From the NCBI GenBank assembly GCA_034521445.1, contig JAXHMM010000005.1:558001-622000 (forward strand): a stretch of 64,000 bases of DNA, in the 5' to 3' direction. A model generated the notes under the pieces. The model ran no database searches. It worked only from the letters and a program-made list of their open reading frames with translations, and was not told the DNA's origin. Within the stretch, counting starts at the first letter, position 1, and each line of letters opens with the position of its first letter. This document shows, piece after piece, positions 45,254-64,000 of this stretch. The position numbers were made by a program, and so were the translations under genes. The DNA comes from Balneolaceae bacterium. GTDB lineage: Bacteria; Bacteroidota; Rhodothermia; Balneolales; Balneolaceae.

Positions 45254-48156
45254 ACCCAACCGACGCTGTTACTCCGCGCGTGCACCGGGATCGCCAGACC
45301 AGGCTGCTGTACGCCAACGACGCGTCCATGTACGAGGAGCTGCCCCGGGGCGTGGCCTTCCCCCACGACGCCGCGGAGATACAGGCACTCGTACGGCGGG
45401 CGGCCGACGAGGACTTCTCCCTTACCGCACGGAGTGCGGGCACCAGCCTGGCAGGACAGGCCACCGGAGAGGGCGTCATCATGGACGTCTCCCGTCACAT
45501 GACGGGCCTGCTGGAACTGGACCCCGACCAGCGCACCGCCCGCGTGCAGCCCGGGGTGATCCGCGACAGCCTCAACCGCGCCGCGGCGCAGCACGGTCTG
45601 CTCTTCGGTCCCGATACAGCCACCACCAGCCGCTGCATGCTGGGCGGGATGATCGGCAACAACTCCTGCGGCATCCACTCGGTAAAATACGGCACCACCC
45701 GCGACCACATCCTGGAAATAGAAGCGGTGCTCAGCGACGGCAGCCGCGCCGTTTTCGGTCCCCTGACCCCCGCCGAGCTGGAGGCCAAGAAGCAGCTCGA
45801 CAGCCTGGAGGGCTATATCTACCGGGGCATGACGGAGCTGGTGCGCCGCAACCGCGAGGCCATCCTGGAGGCCTATCCGCACCCCGACATCCTGCGCCGC
45901 AACACGGGCTACGCGCTGGACCGCCTCTGCCGGATGGCCCCCTTCGAACCCGGCGGACCGCCCTTCAACCTGGCCGAGCTGCTCTGCGGAAGCGAGGGCA
46001 CCCTGGCCATAACCGCCTCCGCCACCGTACGGCTGGTCCCGCAGGATCCCCACCGCTGCATGGTGGTGCCCCATTTCGACTCCATCGAAGCGGCCATGGA
46101 GGCCACCGTGGAGATTGTCCGGCACGGCCCCTCCGCGGTGGAGCTGGTGGACGACATCATCCTGGAGGCCACCCGGGGCAACCTGGAGCAGCAGAAAAAC
46201 CGCTTCTTCCTGGAGGGAGAGCCGCGCGCCATTCTCATCACCCAGTTCGACGGCGACGATCCCGCTCGGCTGCGTGAGCGTGCGGAGGAGGTGGTTGCCC
46301 TGCTGCGCGAAAAAGGACTCTGCGAGGCCGCCCCGGTACTCGACGATTCGGGTGACATCCGGCGCGTGTGGGAGCTGCGAAAGGCGGGGCTGGGACTGCT
46401 GATGGGACTTGGAAGCGAGGAACGCTCGCCTTCTTTCTGCGAGGACACCGCGGTGCGCGTGGAGGACCTGCCGGATTACGTGGCCGATTTCCGCCGGCTG
46501 CTGGACAAATACGGCACCGACTGCGTCTTCTACGCCCACGCCTCGGTGGGCGAGCTGCACCTGCGACCGGTTATCGACATAGAGAACCCGGAGGGTGTGG
46601 AGAAGATGCGGGCCATGGCGGAAGAGGTGGCCTCCCTGGTGCGCAGCTACCGCGGCTCCCTCTCCGGGGAGCACGGTGACGGACGCGTCCGGGCGCCCTA
46701 CATCGAGAAGGTGCTGGGCACGGAGATGATGCCCCTGCTGCGGCAGGTGAAAGAACTTTGGGATCCCAACTACCGCTTCAACCCCGGCAAAATCATCGAG
46801 CCCAAGCCCCTGGGGGTGGACCTGCGCCGGCCCACCCGTCCCCGGGCGATGGAGGCGGACACCGTCTTCGCCTGGCGCCGGGAGGGCGGCTTCGACCGCG
46901 CCCTGGAGCTCTGCAACGGCGCCGGCGTCTGCCGCAAGCTGGCCGGAAGCGGGGGCACCATGTGTCCCTCCTATATGGCCACCCGCGAGGAGAAGGACAG
47001 CACTCGGGGGCGCGCCAACCTCTTCCGCCAGCTATTCGCGGGCGAAGGTCCCGAAGCCTTCCGGTCGGAGGAGCTGCATGACGCCCTCTCCCTATGCCTG
47101 AGCTGCAAGGCATGCAAAAGCGAATGCCCGGCCAACGTGGACATGGCGCGGATGAAGGCCGAGTTCACCCATGGCTGGCACCGTGAGCATGGGATCACGC
47201 GGACCGAACGCTTCTTCGGGCAGGCAGGGCGTCTCTATCCCCTGGCCGCGCGCTTCCCCCGTCTGAGCAATGCACTGCTGGCCTCGCCGGCCGGCAAGGA
47301 GATGCTCTACCGACTGCTTGGCATCGACCGGCGCCGCACCCTGCCCCGCTTCGCCCGGCAGACGTTCACGGACTGGTGGGAAGAACGCCGGGAAGGCGGC
47401 ACCGACGTAGAGAAGCGCCCGGCGGTCTACCTGTTGAACGACCTCTTTACCAATTACCACGAACCGCAGATTGCCCGCTCGGCCGTCCGCGTGCTGGAAG
47501 CGCTCGGCTACCGGGTGATCTGCGACGGCGTCACCGAAACGGGACGCCCGCAGATATCGAAGGGACTCATGGACCGGGCCCGAGAGCTGTCCCTCGAAAA
47601 CATTCCCCGTCTCCACGCCCTCGCCGCACAGGGCATCCCGGTGGTGGGCCTGGAACCCTCCGAGCTGCTCACCCTGCGCGATGAGTACCTCGACCTCTCT
47701 CCCGACGACATGCTGGAGCAGGCCCGGAAACTGGCAGACCGTAGTTTCCTGCTGGAGGAGTTTCTGCTATCCGGAGACCACCCCCTCCAGCCGGCGTGGC
47801 GCACCGACAGGGAGAAGGCGGCAGTACTCCTGCACGGTCACTGCCACACCAAAGCCCTGACCGGCAACGGTCCCGTGCTGGAAGCCCTTTCACAGGCGGG
47901 CTACCGGCCTGAGGCGGCCGACACCGGATGCTGCGGCATGGCGGGCAGCTTCGGCTACGAGGCCGACAAATACGAACTCTCCATGCAGATCGGCGGGCAG
48001 CGACTCTTCCCTGCCATACGGCAATCGTCCGTACAAGAGCGTGAAGAGACTATAATCTGCGCACCCGGTTTCTCCTGCCGCCATCAGATCCGCGACGGGA
48101 CGGGCGAACGCGCGCTCCATCCGGCGGAACTGCTGGAAGCCGCACTTCCGTCGTGA
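45250..48156 (+). CDS. FAD-linked oxidase with Fe-S domain (D-2-hydroxyglutarate/D-lactate dehydrogenase type)
   Basis: 968 residues. The FAD_binding_4 domain (RSAGTSLAGQATGEGVIMDVSRHM; GGMIGNNSCGIHSVKYGTTRDH) and the FAD-linked oxidase C domain with HASVGELHLRPVID are followed by a 4Fe-4S part (CLSCKACKSECPANVDMARMK) and a C-terminal CCG domain (TGCCGMAGSFGYE). This long YdiJ-like type oxidises a D-2-hydroxy acid, most likely D-2-hydroxyglutarate, given its coupling to lhgO. Electrons would go to quinone. The exact acid needs biochemistry. Confidence 0.9.
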   Translation: MNPTDAVTPRVHRDRQTRLLYANDASMYEELPRGVAFPHDAAEIQALVRRAADEDFSLTARSAGTSLAGQATGEGVIMDVSRHMTGLLELDPDQRTARVQPGVIRDSLNRAAAQHGLLFGPDTATTSRCMLGGMIGNNSCGIHSVKYGTTRDHILEIEAVLSDGSRAVFGPLTPAELEAKKQLDSLEGYIYRGMTELVRRNREAILEAYPHPDILRRNTGYALDRLCRMAPFEPGGPPFNLAELLCGSEGTLAITASATVRLVPQDPHRCMVVPHFDSIEAAMEATVEIVRHGPSAVELVDDIILEATRGNLEQQKNRFFLEGEPRAILITQFDGDDPARLRERAEEVVALLREKGLCEAAPVLDDSGDIRRVWELRKAGLGLLMGLGSEERSPSFCEDTAVRVEDLPDYVADFRRLLDKYGTDCVFYAHASVGELHLRPVIDIENPEGVEKMRAMAEEVASLVRSYRGSLSGEHGDGRVRAPYIEKVLGTEMMPLLRQVKELWDPNYRFNPGKIIEPKPLGVDLRRPTRPRAMEADTVFAWRREGGFDRALELCNGAGVCRKLAGSGGTMCPSYMATREEKDSTRGRANLFRQLFAGEGPEAFRSEELHDALSLCLSCKACKSECPANVDMARMKAEFTHGWHREHGITRTERFFGQAGRLYPLAARFPRLSNALLASPAGKEMLYRLLGIDRRRTLPRFARQTFTDWWEERREGGTDVEKRPAVYLLNDLFTNYHEPQIARSAVRVLEALGYRVICDGVTETGRPQISKGLMDRARELSLENIPRLHALAAQGIPVVGLEPSELLTLRDEYLDLSPDDMLEQARKLADRSFLLEEFLLSGDHPLQPAWRTDREKAAVLLHGHCHTKALTGNGPVLEALSQAGYRPEAADTGCCGMAGSFGYEADKYELSMQIGGQRLFPAIRQSSVQEREETIICAPGFSCRHQIRDGTGERALHPAELLEAALPS

Positions 48157-48211
48157 CTCCCTAATCTGCCGTACACGAGGATCTGTTTCTTCATGGCATC
48201 TATAAGGCTAG

Positions 48212-48607
48212 TCAGAAGATCCTAGTCCTATGATCCCTTTTCTCGATGGGCAGGCCCGCCTCGTTCCAGGAGCGGAAGCCCCCTTTGAGCGATTTGACGT
48301 CCCTGTATCCCATTTTCTGGAGGTTGTCGGCCGCCAGTGCGGAGCGGTATCCTCCTCCGCAGTAGAGAACCATCTCCGTATCCACGTCGGCCTCCTCTTC
48401 GATGTCGCGCTCTATCACGCCCTTGCCCAGGTACTCCGCGCCTGCGATGCGGGCCTCCTCCCACTCCTCGCGCTCGCGCACGTCAATCAGCCGGAAGTCG
48501 TCCTTCTTGTCCAGTTTCTCCTGCACCTCCTCCGGGGTTATCTCCTCCACGCGGGTGAGGGCGTCGTTGACCAGGGTGACGAATCGCTCGGAGTGTTGCT
48601 TGGACAT
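48212..48607 (-). CDS. Rhodanese-like domain protein
   Basis: 131 residues from the ATG at 48605-48607. FRLIDVREREEWEEARIAGAEYL and the active-site loop LYCGGGYRSALAA, with the catalytic Cys, then KMGYRDVKSLKGGFRSW, complete a single rhodanese domain. It is probably a sulfur-transfer or redox protein. It has no neighbour in the same unit other than recN upstream. Confidence 0.9.
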   Translation of the reverse strand: MSKQHSERFVTLVNDALTRVEEITPEEVQEKLDKKDDFRLIDVREREEWEEARIAGAEYLGKGVIERDIEEEADVDTEMVLYCGGGYRSALAADNLQKMGYRDVKSLKGGFRSWNEAGLPIEKRDHRTRIF

Positions 48608-48701
48608 GGGGGCAAAAATGTGGGTTGGAAAGAGATTAGCGTTCGTGCGGCTTCCTTGCAAGTCGCATGCGGCGCCGAGTGTTCCCGTCCGACAGAGCCG
48701 G

Positions 48702-50410
48702 TCAGTTACGTGAAGAATTCTTTTCGATGAGTTCCTGGGCACTCTCCAGCGCGGCGTCGGTGATGTCCTCCCCGCTCATCAGTCCCGCCACCTCCCGCAC
48801 ATGCTCCTGTTCCGAAAGGGGCACGATACGTGTCACCGTTCTGCCGCCGGACTCCATTTTCTCCACGCGGTAGTGGCTGTGGGCCTGGCTGGCGATCTGC
48901 GGCTGGTGGGTGATGGCGATGATCTGGCAGCGGGAGGAGAGGCGCCGCATGGTGCGCCCCACCTTCTCGGAAATATGTCCGCTGATGCCGTTGTCAATTT
49001 CGTCGAAGATCATCACGGGCAGGGACTGCTCGCGGGCCAGGATGGATTTGAGGGCCAGCATCACGCGGCTGATCTCCCCGCCTGAGGCGATCTTGGCCAG
49101 GGGTTTGGGCGCCTCCCCCTTGTTGGTGGAGATAAAGAGAGAAACGCGGTCCGAGCCGTGCTCGGTGCACTCCACCGGGGTGCCGTCGATCTGGATCCAC
49201 CCCTCGTCGGCCTCGATGCCACGACACCTGTACCTCCAGGCTGGCGTCGGGGATGCCCAGAGAGGCGAGCTCCTCCTCGATGGCCCCGGAGAGTTTCTCG
49301 CCCACCTCCAGGCGGCGCTCGTGCAGAGCCGCCGCCCGTTCTTTCAGCTGCCCGGAGACCTTGTCGATCTCCTTCTCCTTCTTCTCGATTTCAAGGTCGA
49401 AGTTCTCCGCCAGGTTGAGCTCTTTTTTGATCTCCCGGAGATAGTTGACCAACTCGGGCAGGGTACGGGCTGTATTTTTTACGAAGGCGGTTCAGCTCCG
49501 ACAGACGGCTGCGCAGCTCCTCCAGGCGTCGAGGATTGAACTCGATGCCGGAGCGGTAGCGTTCGGTAAAGCTGACGGTTTCCTGAATACTGATACGCGC
49601 CGAGGAGAGCTCCTCCAGGTAGGTCTCGAATTCGGGTTCGATGCGCGCCATATCCTCCAAGTGCAGTTTCATGCGGTTGAGCAGTTCCATGACGCTCCCT
49701 CGTCGCCGCCGCCCATTTCCACCACGGCCGCCGCCTTCTCGTCCAATTCTTCGGCGTTGTCCAGCAGGTTCATCTCCGCCTCCAGCTCCTCCTCTTCGCC
49801 CGGTTCGATCTGGGCCTCCTCAAGTTCCTTTACCTGGAAGCTGTAGAGCTCACGCTTCTCCTCCAGCTCCGACTCGCGTTTGCGCAGCTTCCTGAGTTCG
49901 CTCCGAAGCCCGCGCATGCGGTCGTAGGTTTCCCGGTAGTCGGCCAGCAGCTCGTCCAGGTTCCCGAAGGCATCCACCACGCCACGGTGGTGCTCCTCGC
50001 GAAGCAGCATCTGGTGGTCGTGCTGCCCGTGGAGGTCCACCAGCCGGTCGCCCACCTGGCGCAGAAGGGTGATAGTGACCGGGGTGTCGTTGATGAAGGC
50101 GCGGCTGCCGGCAGTCGCGAATCTCCCGGCGCAGGATCATCTCCCGGCGAAATTCCACGGCGTTTTCCTCCAGGAGGTCTTTCAGCTCCGGGTCCTCCTC
50201 CACATGAAGAATGCCCTCGGCGATGGCCTTGGAGGTGCCCTGGCGGATGACGTCGGTGTCGGCCCGCTCGCCCAGGATCATATTCAAGGCGCCGATAATG
50301 ATGGACTTCCCCGCCCCGGTCTGCCCGGTAAGAATATTGAGCCCCTCACTGAACTGCACCTCCAGTTCGTCGATGAGCGCATAGTCTTTGATGTAGAGGG
50401 ACTGGATCAT
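48702..50410 (-). pseudogene. recN: DNA repair protein RecN, four frameshifts
   Basis: Leftward from the ATG at 50410, MIQSLYIKDYALIDELEVQF and LTGQTGAGKSIIIGALNMI (Walker A) begin RecN. The reading then jumps frame near 50110, 49690, 49470 and 49215. Together the pieces rebuild LHGQHDHQMLL, the coiled-coil middle, LAKIASGGEISRVMLALKSI (ABC signature) and VMIFDEIDNGISG (Walker B). The total of about 569 residues equals a normal RecN, so each break is a one- or two-base indel, not loss of sequence. RecN is an SMC-like double-strand-break repair ATPase. I suspect sequencing error. Confidence 0.88.
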
Positions 50411-50494
50411 GGGGAGGTGTTTCGTTGGCTGGCGCCCGGTTCAAAAGGAAATATCCGCCTTTGAGGGCTGAGGTTCAAATGGGCGCGAAAATAA

Positions 50495-50539
50495 AAACGG
50501 CCCGCCCTCCCGGCAAAGCCGGAACGGGACAGGCCGTTT
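50495..50539 (-). terminator. Leftward intrinsic terminator between divergent recN and rluA-type genes
   Basis: The outer stem AAACGGCC (50495-50502) pairs with GGCCGTTT (50532-50539), and an inner CCGGC-AAA-GCCGG hairpin sits within. On the minus strand TTTTTATTTT follows, the classic form. It stands upstream of recN and of the divergent pseudouridine synthase, where no annotated gene ends, so it implies an unlisted leftward transcript or a recN leader attenuator. Confidence 0.75.
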
Positions 50540-50683
50540 CCTCTCCTGTGGTAAAATCGTGCGCCCTGCAGGTCTCTCTTAATGAACAGTCACAGGTAAG
50601 ACCGTCGCGGGAGCCGATCCTTACAAAATTTTTCCCTATCATGAGGCGCTCTGCCTAACCGACTATTCAACAACCGCTTAGAC

Positions 50684-51688
50684 GTGTCCGACAAGCAGAA
50701 GAATACCAAAACCACCGACTACCACTTTGAAGTCCCCGAGGGATATCGTGCGGGAGAGCGCCTGGACAAGTACATCACGGGCTTCGTGGAGAACGCCTCG
50801 CGCACCAAGGTACAGGAGGCCATCGAGGAGGGACATGTGCTGGTCAACGGCAAGCAGGAGAAGTCTTCATACAATTTGAAGGCGGGCGACATCATCGACA
50901 TCTCCATCCCCAAGTCCCCTCCCCCGGAGGCCACGCCGGAAAAGATGGAGCTGGATATCATCTACGAGGACGACCATATCATTCTGGTGAACAAGCCCGC
51001 CGACATGGTGGTGCATCCCGCCTATGGCAACTGGACCGGCACCCTGGTGAACGGTCTCCTCTGGCATGCCGACGAGCTCTCGGAGCCCGACACCGACACC
51101 ATCCGCCCTGGCATCGTACACCGGCTGGACAAGGACACCAGCGGCATCCTCGTGGTGGCCAAGAACGACGAGAGCCACCGCACGCTGAGTGAGTATTTCC
51201 GCACCAAGGAGATCGAACGCACCTACTGGGCGATCGTATGGGGGCGGCCGGAACAGGAGAAGGGCACCATCGAAGGGAACATCGGGCGCGACCCGAGGAA
51301 CCGCAAGAGAATGGCAGTGGTGCCGGCCGGCAAGGGCAAGCACGCCGTCACCCACTACGAGGTGCTGGAGCACTTCGATCACCTGACGCTGGTGCAGGTG
51401 CAGCTGGAGACCGGGCGCACCCACCAGATACGGGTGCATTTCGCGCACATGCATATGTGGGTTTTCGGCGACCGGCAGTACGGGGGCGACTCGGTACGCT
51501 ACGGACCCAATACCGGAAGCCGCAAGGCCATGTTCAACAATCTGCTGGCCGGCATGGAGCGGCAGTGCCTGCACGCCAAGACGCTGGGTTTCGACCATCC
51601 CCGCACCGGCGAATTCATGGAATTCCACTCCGATTTGCCCGGCGATTTCCAGCAGGTGCTGGGTACCCTGCGCATGAACTGCAAATAG
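50684..51688 (+). CDS. RluA-family pseudouridine synthase (RluD-like)
   Basis: 334 residues from GTG 50684. An N-terminal S4 domain (GERLDKYITGFVENASRTKVQEAI) precedes the catalytic core HRLDKDTSGILVVAK, with the catalytic Asp, and the TGRTHQIRVHFAHM motif. It isomerises uridines in 23S rRNA, probably helix 69 as RluD does. It ends 2 bp before a bidirectional hairpin. Confidence 0.92.
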   Translation: MSDKQKNTKTTDYHFEVPEGYRAGERLDKYITGFVENASRTKVQEAIEEGHVLVNGKQEKSSYNLKAGDIIDISIPKSPPPEATPEKMELDIIYEDDHIILVNKPADMVVHPAYGNWTGTLVNGLLWHADELSEPDTDTIRPGIVHRLDKDTSGILVVAKNDESHRTLSEYFRTKEIERTYWAIVWGRPEQEKGTIEGNIGRDPRNRKRMAVVPAGKGKHAVTHYEVLEHFDHLTLVQVQLETGRTHQIRVHFAHMHMWVFGDRQYGGDSVRYGPNTGSRKAMFNNLLAGMERQCLHAKTLGFDHPRTGEFMEFHSDLPGDFQQVLGTLRMNCK

Positions 51689-51689
51689 T

Positions 51690-51722
51690 AAAGGGGACCC
51701 CGCCTGCGCGGAGCCCCCTTTG
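51690..51722. terminator. Bidirectional hairpin terminator
   Basis: AAAGGGG with CCCCTTT flanks an inner CCCCG/CGGAG stem. It lies between the convergent RluD-like gene (stop at 51688) and the leftward metalloprotease gene (stop at 51755). The U-tracts are short on both strands. Confidence 0.7.
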
Positions 51723-51754
51723 AAATGTTCAGGCTGCCGGTCGGTTTCCCGGCG

Positions 51755-54366
51755 TCAGTTCTGCAGGGTCAGTCCCGCCTCCAGGGCCTTGTCTATGCGT
51801 GCCTTCGCCTCCTCGAGATGGGCGCGCGTATAGTCGTCGAACTCGAAGGTGGGCGGCGACAGGCGTGAGGCCAGCCGCGAGGAGAGGTTCTTGAGCTGCA
51901 TGCGGGCCACCGAAATGGCGTCGGCCGGCATCTCGTCGTCGGCTTCGGTGACAATGCTGATCATCGACTCCAGATAGGCGCGCTGCAGGTCGCGCCGGTT
52001 GCTGACGATGTTCTGCCCCGGTGCACTCCAAATCTCCTGCCAGATGGCGCCCGTCAGGCGCCCCATCAGCTCAGGGATGGTCACCGTGTTCTCTGCACCG
52101 AACTTGGCCTCCGTGTCACGGATGCGGGAGAGGCGTTCGCCGTCAAGGAGCTGGCTGAGCACCGACTGCTGGATACCCAGCATGGTCTGGTGCAGTGGGT
52201 AGTCGACACGTCCCCATAGGGAGGAGCTGTTGCCCCAGTGGCTCCAGCGGTTGGCGCCGAACTGCTGGAAGACCTCCTGCGGGACGTCCAGGGCGCCCGG
52301 CCGGAAGGCGTATTCGATGATCATATCCAGCGCCTCCACCTGATCCTCCCGGGGAACCGGCACAAAGGGCATGCGGCCCTGCGGGTCGCCCACATGATCT
52401 CGGTACTGGTGCTGGCCTCCGATGTACTTGACGGTGGGCGCCAGCGCGCGGGCGTATTGGAAGAAATAGGACTGGAAGAGGTCCGTGGCCTCGTAATAGG
52501 GCATGTTGTCGGCAAGCGCAATTTCCGGCACCCGGGAAATCAGGTCGCGAAGCATATCGGCTCGCTGCCGGCCCCAGGCCAGAGGGTCGTTGCTCAGGTC
52601 GTAGGTGCGCGTGCGGGATCGAGTCCCGCCGGTATCGGTCCCGTAGGCGTGACCGGGGAAGGCCGAATTACGGGCGTCGATCGGCTGGCGTCGGCCTGCT
52701 GCGGCGTATAGCCGTAGCTGACGACCCAGCGGCCCGGCAGGATCCGACGCCCTGGGTTCCCAGTCGTGCCCGCCCGTGCCTTCGCCTTCGGGATTCGCGC
52801 TTCCGCCGTCGGGATACTCCATGGCGGAACTGAAGACCCCGTTCTGCGCCGTAAACTCCTCGTCGTAGAGCTGCTCAAGCGGCGTGTCGATGGAGGAGCG
52901 GAAGTTGTGCGCTCAGCTCCCAGCGTGTGCCCCACCTCGCGCATGTGGTCACCCAGCGGATGGCCTGGTCGAGGAATTCCTTGGGAACCGGCGAGCCCGG
53001 CTCGATGACGCCGCGGGCCACCATGATGCCGCGGGCCATGTCAAGCTGGGTATGCAGCTCGGCAAAGAAGGCCTTGGTCTTCACGCCCTGCTCCATCAAC
53101 GCAAGCTCCTCTTCGGAGCGGTTGTAGATTTCGTCGATGGCATTGCGGGGCTCAACCATTTCACGGTAATCCGCCTTGTCACCCAGGATCACGTCGGCTT
53201 CGAAGAGAATGTCGGCGTCCATGATCTCCCGGGTGCGGGGATCGACGATGGAGGGACCGATGGCACCGTAACCCGGCTGGTCGGAAGTGCTCCAGCGCAG
53301 GGTGGCGTAGCGGATGTCCGCCGGATCCACGCCTTCGGGCAGCATTTCAGACTGCACGGCGTTGCGGAAACCGGCAGCCTCATAGGCATCAGGACCAGGG
53401 CTTGCACCCCCTCCATCATGGCCTCCCGAAATTCCTCGGGTACCGTGTGGTCGATGTAGTAGATGATGGGCTCCTTCGGAGTACAGAGTCCGTCGGATCC
53501 GGGCGCGCCGTCGCACTCCAGCCGCCAGCGGTTCACATAACGCTTGAAGAAGGTTTTGTCCTCCGTGGTGAAATCCTTGTGCACCGTCAGGAAAAAGCCG
53601 GTGCGGTCATCCCCCATCCGAGGTTCCATCGGCTGCTCGGGGAGCTTGGCCAGATCGTAGTGGATGGAGACGGGGATATAGCGTGTGTCGGGCACCGTGC
53701 GCGGACCGCCGGGATGTTCCGGTTGCCGAAGGTAAGGGACGCGGTGATGGCGGCGTTCTCCAGGAAAACCCTTCACCGATTTCATGTAGCTCCGGGATGG
53801 GTCTACCTGCACGCGGCCGCCGGCCGCGCCCTGCACACGCTGGCTGATATTGGACATGTCCGACACGAACCAGCTGTAGGCATCGATCAGCATCACCGAA
53901 TCGTCATCGGTGGCCGCGATCTCAGCGGTCTCGAGCGCCCGACGGGCTGTAGGCCAGGGTCGCACCGCAAGGGCCTCGGGAGTATCGGGTTCGGCCTTGT
54001 GTCGGTGTGGCTTCTGCATAAAGAAAATCTTGCCCTCGTGTTTTTCGAAGGCTACGAGATGGCCCTCGGAAATAGTTGAGCATGGTGCCCCCGTAGAGGC
54101 CGCTGGAGCCGATGCCCTCGGCGATCTCGAAATTCATCAGAGAACCCCGTCCCAGCATATCCTTGGGAATGGCCAGGTAGAGATGTCCGTCCTTGGCGTA
54201 AGTGTCGATGTAACCGGGCCGGTGGGTGGTACCTTCTGTCAGTTCCGTAAATGTGTCCGTCGTGTCCGCCGCCTCGCCTTCCCCGTTGCCGCCCCGTTGG
54301 GCGAAGGCATCGGCGGAGGAGAGAAGCAGACACGCACAGAAAATAAGCAGGTAGTACTTCTTCATA
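51755..54366 (-). pseudogene. Zinc-dependent metalloprotease, DUF5117/DUF5118 family, frameshifted
   Basis: The start at 54366 encodes a signal peptide (MKKYYLLIFCACLLLSSADA) and then RPGYIDTYAKDGHLYLAIPKDMLG. After frame changes near 54040, 53980, 53750, 53400, 52920 and 52830, the rest of the family can be pieced together: WFVSDMSNISQRVQGAAG, YIPVSIHYDLAKLP, YYIDHTVPEEFREAMMEGV, and the C-terminal MLGIQQSVLSQLLDGERL. The summed length of about 870 residues is normal. At the active site the sequence reads REVGHTLGA where the family has HEVGHTLGL, so the first zinc His appears as Arg. It would be a periplasmic peptidase. Confidence 0.85.
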
Positions 54367-54536
54367 ATATGCGTGTCCGTTGGTTGGGAATGAGTCGTTA
54401 AAACAAAACAGGAATACGGGCAAAGTAGCTTTTTCTGTTTGGGACTGAATCGAGAAAAAGATAGGATGAGGGGTTGAAAAAAGTGGCCCGGGTTTGCCAA
54501 GCAGCAGAGAGCTGCGTATCTTTGAGGCTTCCGATT

Positions 54537-54601
54537 GCGCCCGTAGCTCAACTGGATAGAGCGTCTGGCTACGGACCAGGGTTGGGTTCGAATCCTCCCG
54601 G
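54537..54601 (+). tRNA. tRNA-Arg(ACG), 5' part, acceptor stem interrupted
   Basis: The acceptor strand GCGCCCG (54537-54543), TA, D-stem GCTC...GAGC, anticodon stem TCTGG, loop CTACGGA (anticodon ACG, Arg) and TTCGAAT loop are all present. After CCTCCCGG (to 54601) the expected GCGTA acceptor end is replaced by CAAATTCGG, so only three acceptor pairs form. The T-stem is also short. The proper 3' end lies at 57176-57202. As it stands the gene cannot make a normal tRNA. Confidence 0.85.
54587..54601 (+). repeat. Left attachment-site repeat (attL core)
   Basis: The 15-bp core TTCGAATCCTCCCGG is repeated at 57183-57197. The preceding bases GGTTGG are also shared with small differences. Outside the core, the sequence to the right is island-like and AT-rich, while the left flank is tRNA. 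Confidence 0.8.
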
Positions 54602-54791
54602 CAAATTCGGTAACATTTGGGTAACAAATAACGGCCTTCTATATTTTTATAATTCTATCAATATTGTAATCTGTTCATAACCTTCTACAGAAAACCTTAT
54701 TTTGAATAATTTTGATTAAACCGTTCCAATCCTTTCATCGGCTTTTAAAGGTAACAAAGGTCCTTGTTAAAAAAACTCTCTCCAATGTTTT

Positions 54792-56870
54792 TTAGTGTTT
54801 AATTAAGGTCATTCCAATGGATGAAGAAGTCTCTTGCATGAAATCATCAGGTAATCCTACGCCATTATCTCGAACTTCCACTATTACCTTTTTGTCATTC
54901 TCATGCAGTTTAACCTCAATTTCGCCCTCCTCCCGATTTTTAAAGGCGTGTTTATAGGCATTGGTAACAACCTCGTTAACCAGTAGCGCACACGGAATGG
55001 CCTGGTTAATATTCATGGAAACCGGATCCGCCTCTACGGTAATAGTAATTTGTTTATCCCTGTCATACATTTCCTCAAGGCTTCGAACCAGCCGGGTTAT
55101 ATTTTCCCCAAAGTTTAAATGAGAAAGGCTTTCTGAACTGTACAACAATTCATGAATGGTAGCTATGGTCTGTATTCGCTGCTGAGCAGTTCTAAGCAAA
55201 TCCTGCAACTTACTATTACCAGTATTCATGACCTGCAACTCCATCATGCTCGTAATAATGGCTAAGTTATTTTTTACCCGGTGATGGATTTCGGCCAGGA
55301 GCGTTTCCTTTTCTTTGAGGGATTCCTTCAACTGTTCTTGGGAGGCAATCTGTTCACTAAAATCCATCGCTTCCACAGAAACTCCATAGACGTCCCCTTT
55401 ATCATTAAAGAGTGGTTCATACAATCAAATTAGATGTGTTATTCTTGTTGTGCGTCCTCGTTGCCCTTATCAATAAATATCCGCTCGCTACGGCCAAAAT
55501 ACGGCTCTCCCGTGTCGTGCTGCTTGTTTTCAGTCTATCGATATAGCCCTGACCTTCGGCTTCGGGTATAACCTCATCAACACGCACTTCCTATAATATC
55601 CTCTTGCCCTGCCACTTCCCGGTACGCTTTGTTAGCAATAACAAATTTCATTTCTCGCCCTTCTCAACAGACATTTAGGAGTCGGGGCTTTTTTCAAACA
55701 TCTTCTTAAGCTTGTCTCGATCGCCTTCGGCTTTCTTGCGTTGGGTCTTGCTCCTTGTTCGAGCAACGTGCTCAGCTGCTCCTGGAAGCTACCGATTTGC
55801 TTCGTGATATCCACTCCGAATACCGACCAATATTAGTTTGGTTATCTTGATTCCAGCCTTTCTGCATTAATGGTATACGTGGCCGTGTTACCGCCGGCTG
55901 TATCTGCTGGTCATCTCAAACGAGCCATATCCCTCCTTAAGTACGTGTTGAATTTCCTCCGGCAGCTTTCTCTTTGTCGGCTTCATGCGACGAAGTTCTA
56001 CAGCGGGCTAGCCCTTCTATTTTTCCGAGACAGGTCCCCCTTAAGGACGTTCGCCGTATGCTCATTCGTCTGTACCACCGTTCCCTCTTGGTCTAACACA
56101 TAAAAGACCCCGGGCAAACTGCTAAGTAATACTTTTGTAAATTCTTTTTCATCCCGCAGGTCTTGTTCCTGTTCTTTTCGATCGCTGATTATCTCGAAAT
56201 ATTAAGCATGATCGCTTTCACCGGCATAATTCTTAAACGCCGTCGACGTTACTTCAACGGGTATCTTTTGGCCTTCTTTATGAATAAAAGGTAAGCTCAC
56301 CAGCGTAACTTCCCGTTTCTGCCCGTTCTTTTAATGCCTTTTCTGATTTTTCATCCTTGGCTACAATGCCCTCGCGCCCCCGCTTCGTGATCTCCTTCTC
56401 GGTCATGCCCAACATGTCACAGGCCGCGTAGTTCGCCTGCAGGATTCCCCCGTTGGAAGTTGTCAGCATCATCCCTCCCATGCTCTGCTTGAAGGGTATA
56501 TCTATTGCTTAGCTGGGTGTTCAGCTCCCCCGTAAGATCTTTAAACATGGCCAACTGATAGGTACAGCGCCCTCAGACGGTCACCGGATTGGTGATGACA
56601 TACGCATATGTAAATTCGCCGGTCTTTTTTTGATGTTTCCACAGCCCTTCATCACTGACCATTTCATTATCCATCTGGGCCAGGTGTTTTTTCAGTTTGG
56701 GAACTTCTTCCTAGGGCACAGGTCAAATAAGGTGAGGGGAGACGTTGGAGTCGCTTGAATACCGCATAGCTCAACCATCGACTGATTGACATCCTTTATG
56801 GAGTAATCGTCCGGATCGTAAATACACATCGGGATGGGGTTATCACGAAAAAACTAATAAAGTTTTTATT
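54792..56870 (-). pseudogene. Multi-PAS HisKA_2 histidine kinase, decayed
   Basis: The intact 3' part (54792-55424, about 210 residues) has LLAEIHHRVKNNLAIITSMM, the HisKA_2 phospho-acceptor His, LLVNEVVTNAYKHAF (N box) and VEVRDNGVGLPDDF (G1). It stops at SSIGMTLIKH within the G2 area, so it is truncated. Upstream, PAS fragments appear in changing frames with stops: VFYVLDQEGTVVQTNEH about 56.1 kb, GGMMLTTSNGGILQANYAA about 56.4 kb, and GLWKHQKKTGEFTYAYV about 56.6 kb. At least three PAS domains were present. Codon use is AT-rich, as in lower-GC Balneolales. Confidence 0.8.
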
Positions 56871-57175
56871 TGCATAATATACTCTCTTAAACAGCTATGC
56901 TTTTATTGTATATCCTCTAACTTATTTAAGTAAAAGTATGGATATAGCTGATAAATCAATCTCTAGTGAAAAATATTTCTTTAAACAACCTTTGGGAACT
57001 ATGGTATAGTTACTTTTCGACTGGTTTTTGTCTCCAAGCAACAGCTCATTGGATAAAGTTTTCGGGAAAGCTTATCCCACAGTTACCTTCAGTACTACAA
57101 ATAGTACTACATGAAGTGCAAATTCACGGCCCATTTCCCCGCACAGAAATATCACGTGTAAATTTTACGACGGAG
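56871..57175. other. Gene-free AT-rich right end of the island
   Basis: No protein-like reading frame is convincing here. The only structure I see is a 9-bp direct repeat AGTACTACA at 57091-57099 and 57103-57111 (12-bp period), close to the right att site, and AGTTACC just before it. Confidence 0.6.
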
Positions 57176-57202
57176 GTTGGTTTTCGAATCCTCCCGGGCG
57201 TA
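57176..57202 (+). repeat. Right att repeat with displaced tRNA-Arg 3' end
   Basis: GGTTGG-TTTTCGAATCC followed by TCCCGGGCGTA. CGGGCGT at 57195-57201 pairs with GCGCCCG of the tRNA start 2.6 kb to the left, and A at 57202 fits the discriminator. The core TTCGAATCCTCCCGG at 57183-57197 equals the left repeat. It is the original 3' end of the tRNA-Arg gene. Confidence 0.85.
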
Positions 57203-57234
57203 CTCATTTTCCAACAGCTCCTCCTCCACCACCA

Positions 57235-57271
57235 CAAAAGCCGGGACCGACCATAGTCCCGGCTTTTTTTA
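57235..57271 (+). terminator. Intrinsic terminator, probably that of the original tRNA-Arg
   Basis: AAAAGCCGGGAC pairs with GTCCCGGCTTTT around an eight-base loop, and TTTTTTT follows on the plus strand. It begins about 33 bp after the displaced tRNA 3' end, where a tRNA transcript would normally stop. The remaining 57272-57583 holds no gene I can see. Confidence 0.88.
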
Positions 57272-57583
57272 TGTGCCTGCCCTTCTGTATACGACATCGG
57301 CTGCAATCGCCCACGAGGCATTCCCCTTCGCGCACAGAATTTACCCAACCCAGCCGAAAAGGCATACAACCATCTTTCATCCAATAGTATTCAATATTAA
57401 GTGTATTAGATTATGTACGAATAGTATTTAACTGCCTGTTTTAACAACAATATAGGGAATAAGTTTTTTACAAATATTAGAAAAACAATTTTGAATTAAA
57501 CTTATTTGATTCGTTAAGTCGTCGATGCTAATCTAATTATAGAAAACACACAAACGCCCACCGTCAAATCGAGAGGTTTCATC

Positions 57584-57787
57584 ATGAAAGCCGTTTATAT
57601 TTTCCGGATCCTCTGTATCTGCACCATTCTCGCACTCAGTCCATTTTTACTGGCCGACCGCAACAGCGGGGCACCCGCATTCAACGATGCCAGAGCAGAA
57701 ATCGGAACCTGCTGCAGCCAGCAGGGAGCCATCTGCGTCATTCCGCCGCTGGCCGTGCACAACTTCTATGCCTTGCCACCGGGCTGA
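57584..57787 (+). CDS. Small exported CC-LC protein, copy 1
   Basis: 67 residues to the first stop. MKAVYIFRILCICTILALS is a signal-type hydrophobic start. The mature end has GTCCSQQGAICVIPPLAVHNFYALPPG. Beyond the TGA the +1 frame continues ADPCPPVWGPIPLPDPDG to a TAG, which would add the fourth Cys seen in the other copies, so a one-base indel near 57785 is likely. The family motif is [GA][TY]CC-x5-[IL]C, then YA, then a C-P pair. I do not recognise it. First of four tandem copies. Confidence 0.72.
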   Translation: MKAVYIFRILCICTILALSPFLLADRNSGAPAFNDARAEIGTCCSQQGAICVIPPLAVHNFYALPPG

Positions 57788-57889
57788 TCCTTGTCCCCCC
57801 GTCTGGGGACCGATCCCACTACCTGACCCTGACGGCAACCACTAGTCAGAGTCCCTTCTCCTCACCCTGAAAACCCACGGTACTTTCTC

Positions 57890-58114
57890 ATGACCCGCAA
57901 GAAACGAAGCAGGTTATTAAGGGTGCTAGCCGTCCTCCTATTCGGTCCCATAGCGCTGTTCGGCAGCCCTGCGGATTGGCTATCATTTCGCGAGGCGCCT
58001 TCCAGCAGCGGGACCTGCTGCAAGAGTGACTCCAGCCTCTGTGTCATCCCCCCACACATGATACAGCACCGCTACGCCATGATGCCGAACATCCCCTGTC
58101 CGCCCGTGAGTTGA
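57890..58114 (+). CDS. Small exported CC-LC protein, copy 2
   Basis: 74 residues, complete. The basic start MTRKKRSRLLR precedes a hydrophobic segment (VLAVLLFGPIALFGSPA), a secretion signal. The mature part shows GTCCKSDSSLCVIPPHM, YAMMPN and IPCPPVS at the end: CC, C and C positions as in copies 1 and 3. Four Cys could make two disulfides or bind metal. Intergenic spacing to copy 1 is about 100 bp, to copy 3 about 40 bp. No known family. Confidence 0.78.
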   Translation: MTRKKRSRLLRVLAVLLFGPIALFGSPADWLSFREAPSSSGTCCKSDSSLCVIPPHMIQHRYAMMPNIPCPPVS

Positions 58115-58153
58115 CCCGCCCGACGACGAAACCTGAACATCAGCCTTCCGACC

Positions 58154-58423
58154 ATGAAATCACCAGCCCATTCCTACCGTATTGCCCTCACTTCCCTAAT
58201 TGCCGCCAGCGCGTTCGTGATCCTCTTCTGGAATCCATCCAGCCTGAGAGGGGAGAGCTCCTTGGCCCACGAGGGATATTGCTGTCCACAGGCCGAAGCC
58301 TTGTGCATTGTAAACTGCCACATACGGAACAATGCCTACGCAGTGACCGAAATGCAAAACTGTCCATCCTACCCGCTGGTCTACGTGGAAGGCGGCCCGT
58401 GCCCCGGTGTCAACCCCTGGTAG
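58154..58423 (+). CDS. Small exported CC-LC protein, copy 3
   Basis: 89 residues. IALTSLIAASAFVILFW is the signal segment. The mature part has GYCCPQAEALCIVNCHI, NNAYAVTEMQNCPSYPL and a C-terminal GGPCPGVNPW. It carries extra Cys (six in all after the signal) compared with copies 1 and 2 but keeps the CC-x5-LC core and YA. The open reading frame is clean. Its function is unknown. Confidence 0.75.
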   Translation: MKSPAHSYRIALTSLIAASAFVILFWNPSSLRGESSLAHEGYCCPQAEALCIVNCHIRNNAYAVTEMQNCPSYPLVYVEGGPCPGVNPW

Positions 58424-58457
58424 CCGGCACCTCCATTCAACCAATCAACCTCCTGCC

Positions 58458-58701
58458 ATGACCTCCCGAATCCGATTCCGACTGGCCCTTATTCTTCTAA
58501 TCCTGACAGCCTGCCCCTTCCTTCTCCCCGAGAGCAGGGGCAGCGAGTACCTGGACCCGGACCGATGAAGCCGCCACCTGCTGCCCAGCGAGAACAGCCT
58601 GTGCTTCTTCTCGGAGGAGCTGAAATTCCCGGGCTACTACGCCATACCTCCCGGCAGGCGATGCACTCCGCCCCGGCAACCCGGGCGACCACACCGAATA
58701 A
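58458..58701 (+). pseudogene. Small exported CC-LC protein, copy 4, frameshifted
   Basis: ATG 58458 starts MTSRIRFRLALILLILTAC, a signal (possibly lipoprotein type, Cys after LTA). Three frame changes (about 58545, 58590, 58675) are then needed to read DEAATCCPSENSLCFFSEEL, KFPGYYAIPPGRRCTPP and PGDHTE to TAA at 58699-58701. The CC-x5-LC, YYA and final Cys all match copies 1-3. The density of indels in so short a gene suggests data error more than decay. Confidence 0.65.
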
Positions 58702-58739
58702 CCAGGTCCCGCAACCACCAACATTCATCTGGCAACGCT

Positions 58740-59839
58740 ATGAATACCCGAACACGCTTCCTTCGACGCACTTCCGGCGCCCTCCTGCTGGCGCTGCTCT
58801 GGGCCGGAGACCTCCTCGGCCAGGAACCCGCCGTTCCGGTACAGCCTCTCACCCCTGCCGGGGAGTGGGTGCTGGACCAGGAAGTCATCTGACAATCCCT
58901 CCATGATCCGGTATGTCCGGGGATACATCGTGCTGACCGACGGCAACCCCGACCGGCAGGTAGCCCTCTCGCACGAATCGGACATGCAGTACCTGGGCGG
59001 ATTCGGGCGTAACGGCAGGGGGCCCGCGGAGTTCCTGAGTCCCTGGCTCATCATGGGCGAGCCCGGGTGTCCGCTCTTCTGCATCTACGACCTCAATCTA
59101 CGGCGCATATCGTGCTACGATGCCGACCAGGTGTCGACTGACTTTTCCCGTGTGGAGCCTGAGCTGACGGTCAACCTGGACGGAAGTTTCGGCATGCCCC
59201 TCAACCTCGAAGCACGCCTGTCGCGCAAGGAGTTCATCGTTACCGGCATCTTCGCCGACGAAACCCGCTACCTCGTTTCCGACAGCACCGGGCGCGTCAT
59301 ACAGCGTTCCGGCGCCATTTCGGGAGTCATGCCCAGGGCCCCGGTCAACGTTCAGCACAACGCCGCCCTGGCCCGGGTGGGCGGCCCATCCGCTGGACGG
59401 CCGGCTGGCTTTCGCCTACCGGTTCACGGACCAGATTGACATCTACTCGGCCGAAGGAGAACTTCTGCGCGAGGTCGCCCATCCCGAGAGAACCTCGGAA
59501 CCGGGCCTGGTCCTGGCCTACACACCTTCCGGCCAGCCCTATATGGCGCAGGACAACAACACACGCCTCTCCTACGTCCACGTCATGGCCGACGCCCGGT
59601 TTATCTACGGGCTCTATTCGGGCCGGCAGCGCAGGCAGGGAGCCGCCGACTTCGCCAACCACCTGTTCATCTTCGACTGGGAGGGCAGGCTGGTCTCCAG
59701 CCATCCGCTGAATACCTATGTGGGAAACTGCACGCTGACCGGGGAGCCCGGCACGGTGCTCTGCCTGGAACGTCCTGCAGATCCCCAAGATGATTTCCGC
59801 ATTCTGAAACTACAAGTCCCGGAGCCCCGCGATGGCTGA
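58740..59839 (+). pseudogene. TolB-like six-bladed beta-propeller protein, two frameshifts
   Basis: ATG 58740 encodes a signal (RRTSGALLLALLWAGDLLGQ), then LTPAGEWVLDQEVI. A one-base insertion at 58888-58890 moves to IRYVRGYIVLTDGNPDRQVA, YLGGFGRNGRGPAEFLSPW (the G-x-GP-x-EF loop of the TolB_like family, PF15869) and DLNLRRISCYDAD. A second shift near 59390 leads to HPLDGRLAFAYRFTDQIDIYSA and on to 59839. About 366 residues in all, normal for the family. In Bacteroidales such propellers sit beside NVEALA small peptides; here they follow the CC-LC peptides. Confidence 0.75.
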
Positions 59840-60030
59840 GCAAAAGAGCATCGACTGGAAGTAGCTCGATCGCAGCAGGGCGCCCATTCCCCGGCGAAGC
59901 CGCAGAAGGGCCGACCTCGCATTTAGACTCATTCACTCCGCAAATGTGAGGTCTCATACGCTGGAGACGCCTACTTTCTACCGATTTGCTTATCGTAGAG
60001 CACATCCTGCATGGTACATCCCCGCCGCAC

Positions 60031-61262
60031 ATGAATATCCATCGTAACAGCCTTGCCCTCCTGGTACTGCTTACCCTTGCCGTATCCCAGGCCTCCTGCC
60101 AGCAGAATCAGGAAATCCGCGGGGCGCAGGTTCTCCCCCTTTGATTTTGTTCACCATCTACATGTGCCCGTATTGATTAACGGCCGGGAGGCGAACCTGC
60201 TCTTCGACCCGATTCAAGACATCATGCTTGATTCTAAATTCGCCCGTTCCCACGACATCCACCGAATCGGAGGAGAAGAAGCCGGTTACGGTGGACCGGT
60301 AAGAGCCGGGGGAGCCCGGCCCCCGGGAGCGCCTTGGTGCAATTTGCAAGAAATATCAGCCTTGAGGCGGGAGGGAAAATCTACGGCTATAGCCTGACGC
60401 CGGCCATTCCCCTCGATTCGATGATGGCCTCTTCCCTGGGCCGTCATGTCGACGGTCTCCTGGGCATCAATGTCATTCTCGGATTTCGTGCTTGCCTTTG
60501 ACTTCCCCGGAAAACGCTTCCAGCTGCATCCACACATGGACTTTGATCCTCCACCGGGGGCGGTGCCGCTTTCCATAACATGGGTTCGCCGGCGTCCTAC
60601 GGTCACCCTCACTTACCGCGCCGGGAAGAGATTGTCCCAAGGTCGGTTTCTCCTGGATTTCAGAATGGGCGGGACCATAGCAATTCACCACGTTCCACAC
60701 GGACTCCCCCGATCTCCTGTCGCTTGCATCCCACCATTACAACGGAGGGAGAAGCGGCCTGGGTAGCCTGGAAAGTAGGGCGGGCCGGCTGCCTCGCCTC
60801 TCCGTGGGAAAATTCAACCTGGACTCCCTGGTGGTAACCCTGGCCAGGGAAAGATCGGGAGCCGATTTTAACCCCCCATGGGATGGCCTGGTGGGACTAG
60901 GCCTGCTGAGCCAATTCCGAAATTTGGCTGGACTTGAACAGCAACCGCATATGGCTCCGTCCCAACAGGCGTTTCGGCCGCCCTTCCGAATGGATATACA
61001 CCGGCGTGGGATTCACGCCCGGGAAGAACCCGTTCACCGTCAACCAAATTGACAAAAATTCACCTTCCGAGCATGCCGGTTTTAAAAACGCAAACACCCA
61101 TCCGTTCTGTGAACAGCAAACGCCGTCAGTTGGAACGTACGGGAGTGGAAGGAAGAGCTGGAAAAATTTCCCGGCCAAAAGGTGGTTGTGGAGGTGATAA
61201 GAGAAGGTCAAACCATTCGCCTGCACTTTTCCGTGACCTCCAGGATACCAGGGCGTAGGTAA
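60031..61262 (+). pseudogene. Two-lobed aspartyl-protease-like protein with C-terminal PDZ, frameshifted
   Basis: ATG 60031 starts with a signal (LALLVLLTLAVSQASC). Pieces in three frames rebuild lobe 1 (VPVLINGREANLLFDPIQD), the inter-lobe stretch VDGLLGINVIL and FDFPGKRFQLHPHMDF, lobe 2 (GRFLLDFRMGGTIAIH), and a PDZ domain (WIYTGVGFTPGKNPFTVNQI; PGQKVVVEVIREGQTI). Retropepsin-like Bacteroidota proteases have this order. The catalytic D-T-G reads D-P-I in lobe 1 and D-F-R in lobe 2, so as given it would be inactive. About 400 residues when joined. Confidence 0.68.
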
Positions 61263-61332
61263 ATACGGACCATTAACTGAGCGTGTACTCCCTGACATGC
61301 CCCATTTCCTTTCCCCTTAACAACCAGATCAC

Positions 61333-61849
61333 ATGAAAATGTACACCCGCATCACAGGCCTGAAACAATCGATCAAAAATCGCGGGTGTTGTGATTCTCT
61401 GGCTTATAGCGAGCGGGTGTCTCCCTTATCGAAGACAGGCTGACACCGATGAGATCGCGCGGTGGGAGGAGGAGGAGTTGATGGAAGCGGACCGAACCTT
61501 CCAGGAGACCAGCCGGAAGCAGGGACTGGAGGGGTGGCTTTCCATGATGAGCCGGGATGTGGTACGCATGCCCGTATTCGGGAGTGCCTTTATCAAAGGA
61601 CGAGACAAGGTCGCCCGGCTGGACTCCTCCCTGTGGAATACGCCCGGCCTGCACCTGGAATGGGAGCCCGAGCAGTCGGTAGTATACTCCGGCGGATCGC
61701 TAGGCCTGACCACGGGCAGTTACCGGTTGCTGGAGGATGTGTCCGGTAGATGCAGGCAAGAGAGACACCGGGCAATACCTTACCTTGTGGAAAAGGACGA
61801 TACCGGAAGGTGGCAGGTCCTGTTCGATACTGGCGTCTCCGATTACTAG
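61333..61849 (+). pseudogene. DUF4440/SnoaL-like lipoprotein, frameshifts
   Basis: ATG 61333 is in a different frame from the lipoprotein signal ILWLIASGC at 61391. The body, WEEEELMEADRTFQETSRKQG, then MSRDVVRMPVFGSAFIKGRD, fits the NTF2-like DUF4440 family. Near 61742 and 61790 two compensating shifts hide AGKRDTGQYLTLW; the second lies at an AAAA run. With both corrected the end reads KKDDTGRWQVLFDTGVSDY, a classic DUF4440 ending. It is a probable envelope lipoprotein of unknown role, last in the rightward row of exported-protein genes. Confidence 0.68.
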
Positions 61850-61869
61850 TAGCGTATCCACACCAACGC

Positions 61870-62278
61870 CTACGAGGCTGCGTAGCTGACCACGCGCTTC
61901 CAGTGCAGTTTTGCAAAAAGAACCACCGCAGCCGCCTCCATGCCCCGGCCCGCAAGCTGCATCCAGCCGGAACCCGCCAGGTGGTAGGCCAGCACCAGGG
62001 CGATGCCCCCGTTCAGCAGCAGGGCCATCGGCCCAGGGCCGCGACGGGATTTCCTCGGGGGGACCCTCCAGGTGGCGGGGCAGCATCCAGTAAGCCGTGC
62101 CGAGGGTGAACTGGACCACCCAGCCGGGAAGGGCCAGCTCGATGTGCAGGGGCAGCAGATGCCAGAGTCCGTCATGCAGCGGCCAGGCCTTGTGCACCAG
62201 CAGCAGCCCTCCCATGCCCGTGGCCGTCAGCAGGCAGGCGAGGGAGGATCGGATCATGATGCGGCTCACAAGAGGCAT
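61870..62278 (-). pseudogene. Polytopic membrane protein, His-rich helices, frameshifted (A)
   Basis: From 62278 leftward, MIRSSLACLLTATGMGGLLLV, LHDGLWHLLPLHIELALPGW and VVQFTLGTAYWMLPRHLEG give helices with H-x2-H and W-x2-Q patterns seen in heme-copper-oxidase-subunit-I/NnrS-like relatives. A shift near 62040 leads to MALLLNGGIALVLAYHLAG and LFAKLHWKRVVSYAAS. About 135 residues. It could be one half of a split NnrS-like protein. Function unknown. Confidence 0.6.
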
Positions 62279-62291
62279 CTAGCTTGCGGGT

Positions 62292-62776
62292 TTATTTCGA
62301 CCAGAGGGGTTGCCGCTTCCCTTTCGCCCGCCTGCGCTCCCGCTCCTTTCTACGCTGCCGTCGCCGCTTCTCCTTGGACTGCACCCGGGGCCAGATCTCC
62401 AGCAGATAGGCCCCGGCCCCGGAAAACTGCAGAAGGGCCCGGAAAGGCCCAGGACGACGGCAGCCGCCTCGTCAGGCCGGCCCGCCGCGAAAGGTTCGGC
62501 CCCCACCCGGAGCATGAGTCCGACGTTTAGCGCCAGGAAGGCCAGCCAGGGTTTGGGCTGGGCACGGAATCCCTCCTCCCGCGTCCGCCCGGGAAACATC
62601 CAGACGGAGACGCCCATGATAATCTGGGTGATCCATCCCACGGTGAGCATATGCCAGAAAAGCGGCATGAGCGCCGGCAGTCCCGCCGGGTCGAGGGCGG
62701 ACAGAAGGCCCGCGGCCAGGGAAAGCAGAAACCAGACGAGGCCGGACTTGATAAAAAGCCGGGTGATACGAGGCAT
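62292..62776 (-). pseudogene. Polytopic membrane protein, His-rich helices, frameshifted (B)
   Basis: MPRITRLFIKSGLVWFLLSLA, PLFWHMLTVGWITQIIMGVSVWMFPGR and KPWLAFLALNVGLML give four helices; the W-H-M-L-T-V-G-W-I-T-Q motif resembles gene A and its right neighbour. Near 62435 the frame changes and the tail becomes AYLLEIWPRVQSKEKRRRQR, very basic, to TAA at 62292. About 160 residues. It follows the next gene C by 3 bp, so A, B, C and D are likely one unit. Confidence 0.6.
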
Positions 62777-62779
62777 GAA

Positions 62780-63004
62780 TCAGCGGTCATCCTTTCCGGA
62801 TGGTTCGACGACCGAATCTATTCCTTCCACGGGGGCCGAACGCGCCAGGACGGCCCACATCCAGGTCATGGCCAGCACGGGCAGGGCGGCTGCGGCCGCA
62901 AGCGTCCAGAAGGCCCACATGCCGGTCCACCCCGCCGGTACGGCCGGGGTAAGCAGCAGGAGACAGCAGCACCGCGACCACGCTGCCCGCGAGCAGATAA
63001 TCAC
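62780..63004 (-). CDS. Short membrane protein, start uncertain (C)
   Basis: The end of the frame, TGMWAFWTLAAAAALPVLAM and TWMWAVLARSAPVEGID, is a membrane helix pair; the first 20 residues of the reading are not protein-like. A neighbouring frame holds GRDYLLAGSVVAVLLS just upstream, which may be its true first helix joined by an indel near 62960. It may be a small subunit of the D-encoded system. Confidence 0.45.
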   Translation of the reverse strand: MIICSRAAWSRCCCLLLLTPAVPAGWTGMWAFWTLAAAAALPVLAMTWMWAVLARSAPVEGIDSVVEPSGKDDR

Positions 63005-64000
63005 GACCGGTACGGCACCTGACGGAGCAGGTGCAAGTCCGGCAGCGCCCGCCAGCGTAAAGCGCCCAGCAGCAATACATGCAGATAGAAAATGCGAAGC
63101 GCATGACTGGAGAGCAGGAAGTCACCGGGAACCACCGAAGCAGCAACCTGCATGAAACCCTTGAGCGCCAGGAGGGCCAGCGGCCACAGAAGCAGTCCCC
63201 CCAGCCGGCTTTTATGCTTCCAGAAACCGTAGCAGAGAACCAGCAGTCCCACGCCGGCCGCCACCCCTCCCAGGCGCCCGATCACCAGCATGAGTGGGGA
63301 GAGCAGATCCTCCGATATGCCGTAGATAAAGGTAAGAGGGGCACCCAGCACAATGGCCGTCACCGGCAGCGCAAACGCCCCCCGGCCGGTCCACGCGCGC
63401 AGGTCTGCCGTCTCGGCAAGCATGGCCAGCGCGGCCAGCACCACCCAGCCCTCTGCAAAACAGGCCAGGAAGAAATGGGTCAGGGCCATGCCCAGCAGGG
63501 GCGTGCCCGGCGCCAGGTTCTGGGCCAGGGCCACCCCCCAGGCGCCCAGGCTGCTGACCAGCAACAGGAGCAGCGCGGAGTCCATGAACAGCAGGCCCGG
63601 CCGGTTGCCCGGCCGCAGGCGCAGTTTCCACCAGATGGCCATAAAGGCATACCAACTGACCATCACGGCCCCGCTGATCATGACGGAGAGGGGCAGGGAG
63701 ATACCGCCCAGAGAAACCGGCCGGTAGCCGTAAAGCAGGAAAAAAGCCAGGAAAGCAGGCCGAGTCCCAGTCCCCAGCCGATGCAGGCCCGGAGCCGGCT
63801 AATAAGGCGCGACTGTTCGGGGAGCAGGCGGGCCATGCTCTTCCAGAGAAGGTACATGGGAAGGGGACAGCCCACCCGAAGAACATCAGGTGGGAATGAG
63901 CGTGGCGGAGGTTATCCAGGCTGAGTTCCCCGGGGAGCGGGGACACCATGCCCGCACGGAAAAACAGGCCCGTGGCCCCCGCCAGCACGAAGCAGAACAG
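63001..64000 (-). pseudogene. Polytopic membrane protein, frameshifted, 5' end outside window (D)
   Basis: The first part visible (leftward from 64000) has ATGLFFRAGMVSPLPGELS and LDNLRHAHSHLMFFGW, a His-rich helix start. Shifts near 63865 and 63745 lead to MYLLWKSMARLLPEQSRLIS and then to a clean 226-residue stretch (MISGAVMVSWYAFMAIWWKL; FFLACFAEGWVVLAALAML; YGFWKHKSRLGGLLLWPLAL) ending RQVPYRS. At least seven helices are seen. The H-A-H-S-H and related motifs suggest heme or metal sites as in NnrS/oxidase-like proteins. Family not settled. Confidence 0.6.

What the first reader, a model, noticed from the sequence alone, without database searches (positions are those of the whole stretch)
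54537..57271. tRNA-Arg(ACG) split by a 2.6-kb insertion, 3' end and terminator left behind
The tRNA body at 54537-54601 loses its acceptor end inside the 15-bp core TTCGAATCCTCCCGG. The same core, followed by GGGCGT + A that pairs with GCGCCCG, is at 57183-57202, and a strong rightward terminator follows 33 bp later. This is the footprint of tRNA-targeted integration, but the element did not restore the tRNA 3' end at the left junction. If real, the gene is dead and another Arg(ACG) tRNA must serve.
Basis: partly seen in the sequence, partly recalled or inferred. Interest (0 to 1): 0.72.

Follow-up and report, generated by a model that had tools for sequence, protein, structure and literature searches.

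The report
Island remnant in tRNA-Arg hotspot
A 2.6-kb leftover of mobile genomic islands sits inside an arginine tRNA gene that is a regular landing site for such islands in this bacterial family; the tRNA looks broken here, but this stretch is an error-rich strain variant in the assembly, which also holds the intact, island-free version, so it is ordinary biology plus poor sequence.

Summary
The split tRNA-Arg(ACG), the repeated 3' end and the terminator are really in the window. The same assembly holds the empty site: contig C14 is the other path of an assembly bubble (window 47966 to 84246), with an intact tRNA-Arg(ACG) followed directly by the same terminator. tRNA-targeted integration is therefore supported. 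The attachment core is longer than 15 bp; relatives' fragments start at the anticodon loop. In Balneolaceae relatives this tRNA, beside the same pseudouridine synthase/metalloprotease genes, is an island hotspot, and the islands leave the tRNA whole. The insert has ends of two island types (left GGTAACA arms, right GTACTACA module), one sensor-kinase gene and no integrase: most likely the remnant of a collapsed tandem array. Against its family the left junction lacks about 85 bp, including the tRNA's last bases and the island's own terminator. The branch is full of single-base indels (20 frameshifts in a gene 94.6% identical in protein), so the broken kinase, and probably the smaller gaps in the tRNA, are sequencing error. 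A dead tRNA in a living cell is not shown and is unlikely, because no other tRNA in the assembly would read CGU/CGC/CGA.

The parts
47966..64000 (.). window part of an assembly bubble (continues to window coordinate 84246 on the contig); contig C14 (25.9 kb) is the other path
   Evidence: C14 1-3707 matches window 47966-51681 at 97.8% and C14 24950-25905 matches 83292-84246 at 98.7%, with 70-86% between; frameshifts in most tested genes of this stretch
51755..54361 (-). metalloprotease gene (DUF5118/DUF4953) next to the tRNA
   Evidence: Pfam; intact 924 aa in C14, 12 frameshifts and 0 stops here at 88% identity
54537..54601 (+). tRNA-Arg(ACG) body, attL side; lacks four bases in variable loop/T stem and the last GCGTA
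54602..54608 (+). deletion point: CAAATTC joins the truncated tRNA directly to the arms; relatives have 85-88 bp with a terminator here
54609..54626 (+). type A integrase-arm repeats GGTAACATTTGGGTAACA
   Evidence: motif in 11 of 129 genomes of the order; in relatives 7 of 13 places have an ARAGORN tRNA just upstream of the arms and 4 lie beside an integrase-like reading frame
54701..56875 (-). single cargo gene: multi-PAS HisKA_2 histidine kinase, about 720 aa, readable only across about 20 frameshifts
57053..57171 (+). type B right-end module (TTTTCGGGAAAG...GTACTACAAATAGTACTACATG)
   Evidence: 75-78% identical to island right ends in G046, G048, G051, G052, G056
57172..57202 (+). displaced tRNA-Arg 3' fragment (attR), ends in GGGCGTA
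57238..57271 (+). terminator of the original tRNA gene; follows the intact tRNA in C14

Best explanation
The tRNA-Arg(ACG) gene is an integration hotspot. In the strain behind this branch of the assembly it carries a 2.6-kb remnant of two different islands that once stood in tandem. The left arm comes from a type A island (GGTAACA arms, integrase with an arm-binding domain), the right end from a type B island (GTACTACA module). Almost everything between, both integrases included, has been lost, leaving one sensor-kinase gene. About 85 bp at the left junction (last tRNA bases, island-borne terminator, spacer) are missing, either by true deletion or by a wrong join in this poor stretch. The kinase frameshifts, and probably the small gaps in the tRNA, are sequencing errors. 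Shown: empty site, types of the two ends, hotspot in relatives, the missing 85 bp, the error load. Inferred: the tandem-collapse history and the functional state of the tRNA in the cell.
For: Empty site in C14 with intact tRNA and the same terminator; C14 is the other bubble path. Type A: arms 85-88 bp behind an intact tRNA in 6 of 6 measured cases, integrases with Arm-DNA-bind_3 and Phage_integrase beside right-end arms. Type B: left ends with GGTACTACATTTGGTACTACA and a long integrase-like frame, right ends with the module, 73-95 kb apart in G046, G051, G056 (the related frame in L121 is Phage_integrase). An A-type island followed by a B island at this tRNA stands in G046 at 470636/478911/568961. 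In the window the GGTAACA pair is at the left end and GTACTACA only at 57092 and 57104. No integrase trace in the insert. The same tRNA near the same pseudouridine synthase is intact and followed by island ends in Fodinibius sediminis, F. roseus and Aliifodinibius salipaludis. Error load: nos_propeller gene 20 frameshifts at 94.6% identity, substitutions 97/16/14 at codon positions 3/1/2, insertions mostly outside homopolymers.
Against: The kinase's relatives (69-72% nt) are not shown to be island cargo; in G006 it stands among housekeeping genes. Base-level errors here are insertion-biased and do not by themselves make an 85-bp loss. The mixed ends could also mean an island type whose two arm sets differ.
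Confidence: 0.55

Rival explanations
1. Assembly artefact at the junctions: the true locus holds a full tandem of islands with an intact tRNA, and a chimeric or wrongly joined read dropped the middle and the 85 bp.
For: Error-rich branch; the family's islands leave the tRNA whole; loss of the tRNA would leave CGU/CGC/CGA unread in this assembly.
Against: Both ends and a near-complete kinase gene lie in a compact, sensible order; a mis-join would have to make both the short insert and the deletion.
Confidence: 0.3
2. One reading: the element integrated without restoring the tRNA 3' end, the gene is dead and another Arg(ACG) tRNA serves.
For: The letters of the window as they stand; score under the Rfam cut-off.
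Against: No second Arg(ACG) locus in the assembly, only the other allele; no Arg(TCG) tRNA either; relatives' islands restore the tRNA; error load.
Confidence: 0.06
3. A tiny non-autonomous cassette (one sensor kinase between two attachment ends) moved by integrases supplied by other islands.
For: Compact, both ends present, no integrase.
Against: Ends are of two different types; no second copy of the whole insert in 129 genomes of the order; only three Phage_integrase genes in the own genome.
Confidence: 0.09

Closest known systems
tRNA-targeted genomic islands as in the Islander database (PMC4383910)
   Same: tRNA gene split by an insert, displaced 3' fragment in the same orientation at the far end, fragments beginning at the anticodon loop, tandem arrays at one tRNA
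   Different: no integrase inside, only 2.6 kb, ends of two types, tRNA at the near end not whole in the assembly
Islands at tRNA-Arg(ACG) of Fodinibius/Aliifodinibius found here (G046, G051, G052, G056; L156, L158, L160)
   Same: same tRNA near the same genes, same right-end module
   Different: those are tens of kb, carry integrases and leave the tRNA intact

Membership tests
tRNA-targeted integrative genomic island | insert absent from an otherwise matching locus (empty site) | tested here: met
   contig C14
tRNA-targeted integrative genomic island | displaced tRNA 3' fragment in the same orientation at the far end | tested here: met
   57172-57202
tRNA-targeted integrative genomic island | tRNA gene regenerated at the near end | tested here: not met
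   last GCGTA and four inner bases missing in the assembled sequence; sequence quality leaves it open for the cell
tRNA-targeted integrative genomic island | tyrosine integrase gene inside | tested here: not met
   tblastn of four relatives' integrases gives only chance matches in the insert; hence filed as a remnant, not a complete island
type A island of Balneolaceae (GGTAACA arms) | arms 85-88 bp behind an intact tRNA, same arms at the right end | tested here: not met
   left arms present but 7 bp behind the truncated core; right end is type B
type B island of Balneolaceae (GTACTACA module) | right-end module plus type B left end with integrase | tested here: not met
   module met; left end is type A

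The most novel reading that the evidence does not exclude
A strain truly lives with its only tRNA-Arg(ACG) truncated by a one-gene cassette whose two ends belong to different integrases, so that arginine CGN decoding is compensated in some unknown way.
Probability: 0.03. Interest if true: 0.65.

Novelty: new member of a known kind. Interest (0 to 1): 0.18.

Why it matters
It documents tRNA-Arg(ACG) as a recurrent island hotspot in Balneolaceae, with two island types that form tandem arrays, and shows how a strain bubble in a metagenome-type assembly can mimic a dead essential tRNA gene. That is a useful caution for scans of tRNA integrity; it opens no new question of mechanism.

Tried and rejected
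Second Arg(ACG) locus in the own genome: none beyond C14. Kinase as recurrent tRNA cargo: in G006 it lies near tRNA-Leu(GAG), but no repeat of flanking sequence was found and the neighbours are housekeeping genes, so rejected. Genuine decay of the kinase: rejected because other genes of the same branch have a similar frameshift density. Homopolymer-type errors: most gaps are single inserted bases outside long homopolymers. One Pfam scan failed on wrong coordinates and was repeated. A paper search for disrupted tRNA-Arg genes gave nothing direct.

Full report
What is in the sequence. The window holds a tRNA-Arg(ACG) body at 54537-54601 that stops inside the acceptor stem, and the same core followed by the proper end GGGCGTA at 57183-57202 with a terminator behind. 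No tool calls a tRNA there at normal thresholds; at a loose one the left piece scores 23.7 bits against a cut-off of 29.

Empty site. The window is bases 558001-622000 of contig C5 of a genome in 18 contigs. The only intact tRNA-Arg(ACG) of that genome is on contig C14. C14 is not a second locus: it matches C5 at both of its own ends (97.8% over 3.7 kb and 98.7% over 1 kb) and at 70-86% between, in the same order, so the two are best read as alternative paths of an assembly bubble reaching from window 47966 to 84246. In C14 the tRNA runs straight into the terminator that stands at 57238 in the window. The 2.6 kb between is therefore an insertion in one of two strains.

Quality of the stretch. 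Before about 48 kb the window has long open genes; after it open-frame coverage falls and recovers near 85 kb. With C14 proteins as guides, the window's path carries 12 frameshifts in the metalloprotease (88% identity, no stop), 12 in a NosD gene and 20 in a nos_propeller gene that is 94.6% identical. Substitutions in the last fall 97/16/14 at codon positions 3/1/2, as in a gene under selection, and the gaps are mostly single inserted bases outside homopolymers. This pattern fits sequencing error and not gene decay. Not every gene is hit: the pseudouridine synthase at 50684 has none. The kinase in the insert has about 20 frameshifts, a density like that of its neighbours. Three other tRNAs of the genome show a four-base anticodon call, which may be the same kind of error.

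The right end. Bases 57053-57171 are 75-78% identical to a module that precedes a tRNA-Arg 3' fragment in several genomes. The fragment there starts at the anticodon loop (TTACGGATCAGGAGG...), and traces of it (TTTTACGACGGAGG) stand in the window before 57183, so the exchange lies in or near the anticodon loop and the shared core is about 40 bp, blurred by indels. In G046, G051 and G056 this module closes islands of 73-95 kb whose left ends carry GGTACTACATTTGGTACTACA and a long integrase-like reading frame; I call this type B.

The left end. Bases 54609-54626 are GGTAACATTTGGGTAACA, a rare motif in the order (11 of 129 genomes). In relatives it stands 85-88 bp behind an intact tRNA (Asp, Phe or Arg), with a terminator between, and again at the right end beside an integrase with an arm-binding domain; I call this type A. 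The window insert thus joins a type A left end to a type B right end. G046 shows an island with an A-type integrase followed directly by a B island at this tRNA. The simplest history is a tandem array that lost its middle; this is inference.

The missing tRNA end. Aligned to a type A left end, the window lacks one block from the last five bases of the tRNA through the island's own terminator to the arms, about 85 bp. Single-base errors do not make such a block, so it is a true deletion or a wrong join; these tools cannot tell which. The two inner gaps of two bases in the tRNA fit the general error load. The assembly has no Arg(TCG) tRNA and no other Arg(ACG) locus; from general knowledge of decoding, Arg(CCG) reads only CGG. 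A cell with this tRNA dead and no other copy could not read CGU, CGC and CGA, so a dead gene is the least likely state.

Context and filing. The relatives are Balneolaceae. In Fodinibius sediminis, F. roseus and Aliifodinibius salipaludis the same tRNA lies close to the same pseudouridine synthase, is intact, and is followed by island ends. The kind is that of the Islander islands, in which the tRNA is restored and its fragment displaced, with tandem arrays and anticodon-loop sites known (PMC4383910). The insert is filed as a remnant of such islands, because it has no integrase and its near-end tRNA is not whole as assembled.

Noticed in passing
contig C14 (L080, L104) versus window 47966-64000 and on to 84246: Two divergent strain paths (70-86% identical, with nos genes) were binned into one genome; the window follows the poorer one.
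   Followed up: partly
L042, L043, L044 (G000:C3:167139-167213, G000:C6:483761-483835, G000:C6:479882-479954): Three tRNAs with a four-base anticodon call (enlarged loop), probably single-base insertion errors, possibly damaged copies.
   Followed up: no
L106, L109, L111: McrBC-like, OLD-like nuclease and type I restriction genes stand next to the type B module at tRNA-Arg, so the hotspot may collect defence genes (read from translations only).
   Followed up: no
L112:8855-9134 and L113:9162-9469: Decayed tRNA-Arg 3' ends beside degraded copies of the module, one next to a heavy-metal P-type ATPase gene: older remnants of the same kind of site.
   Followed up: no
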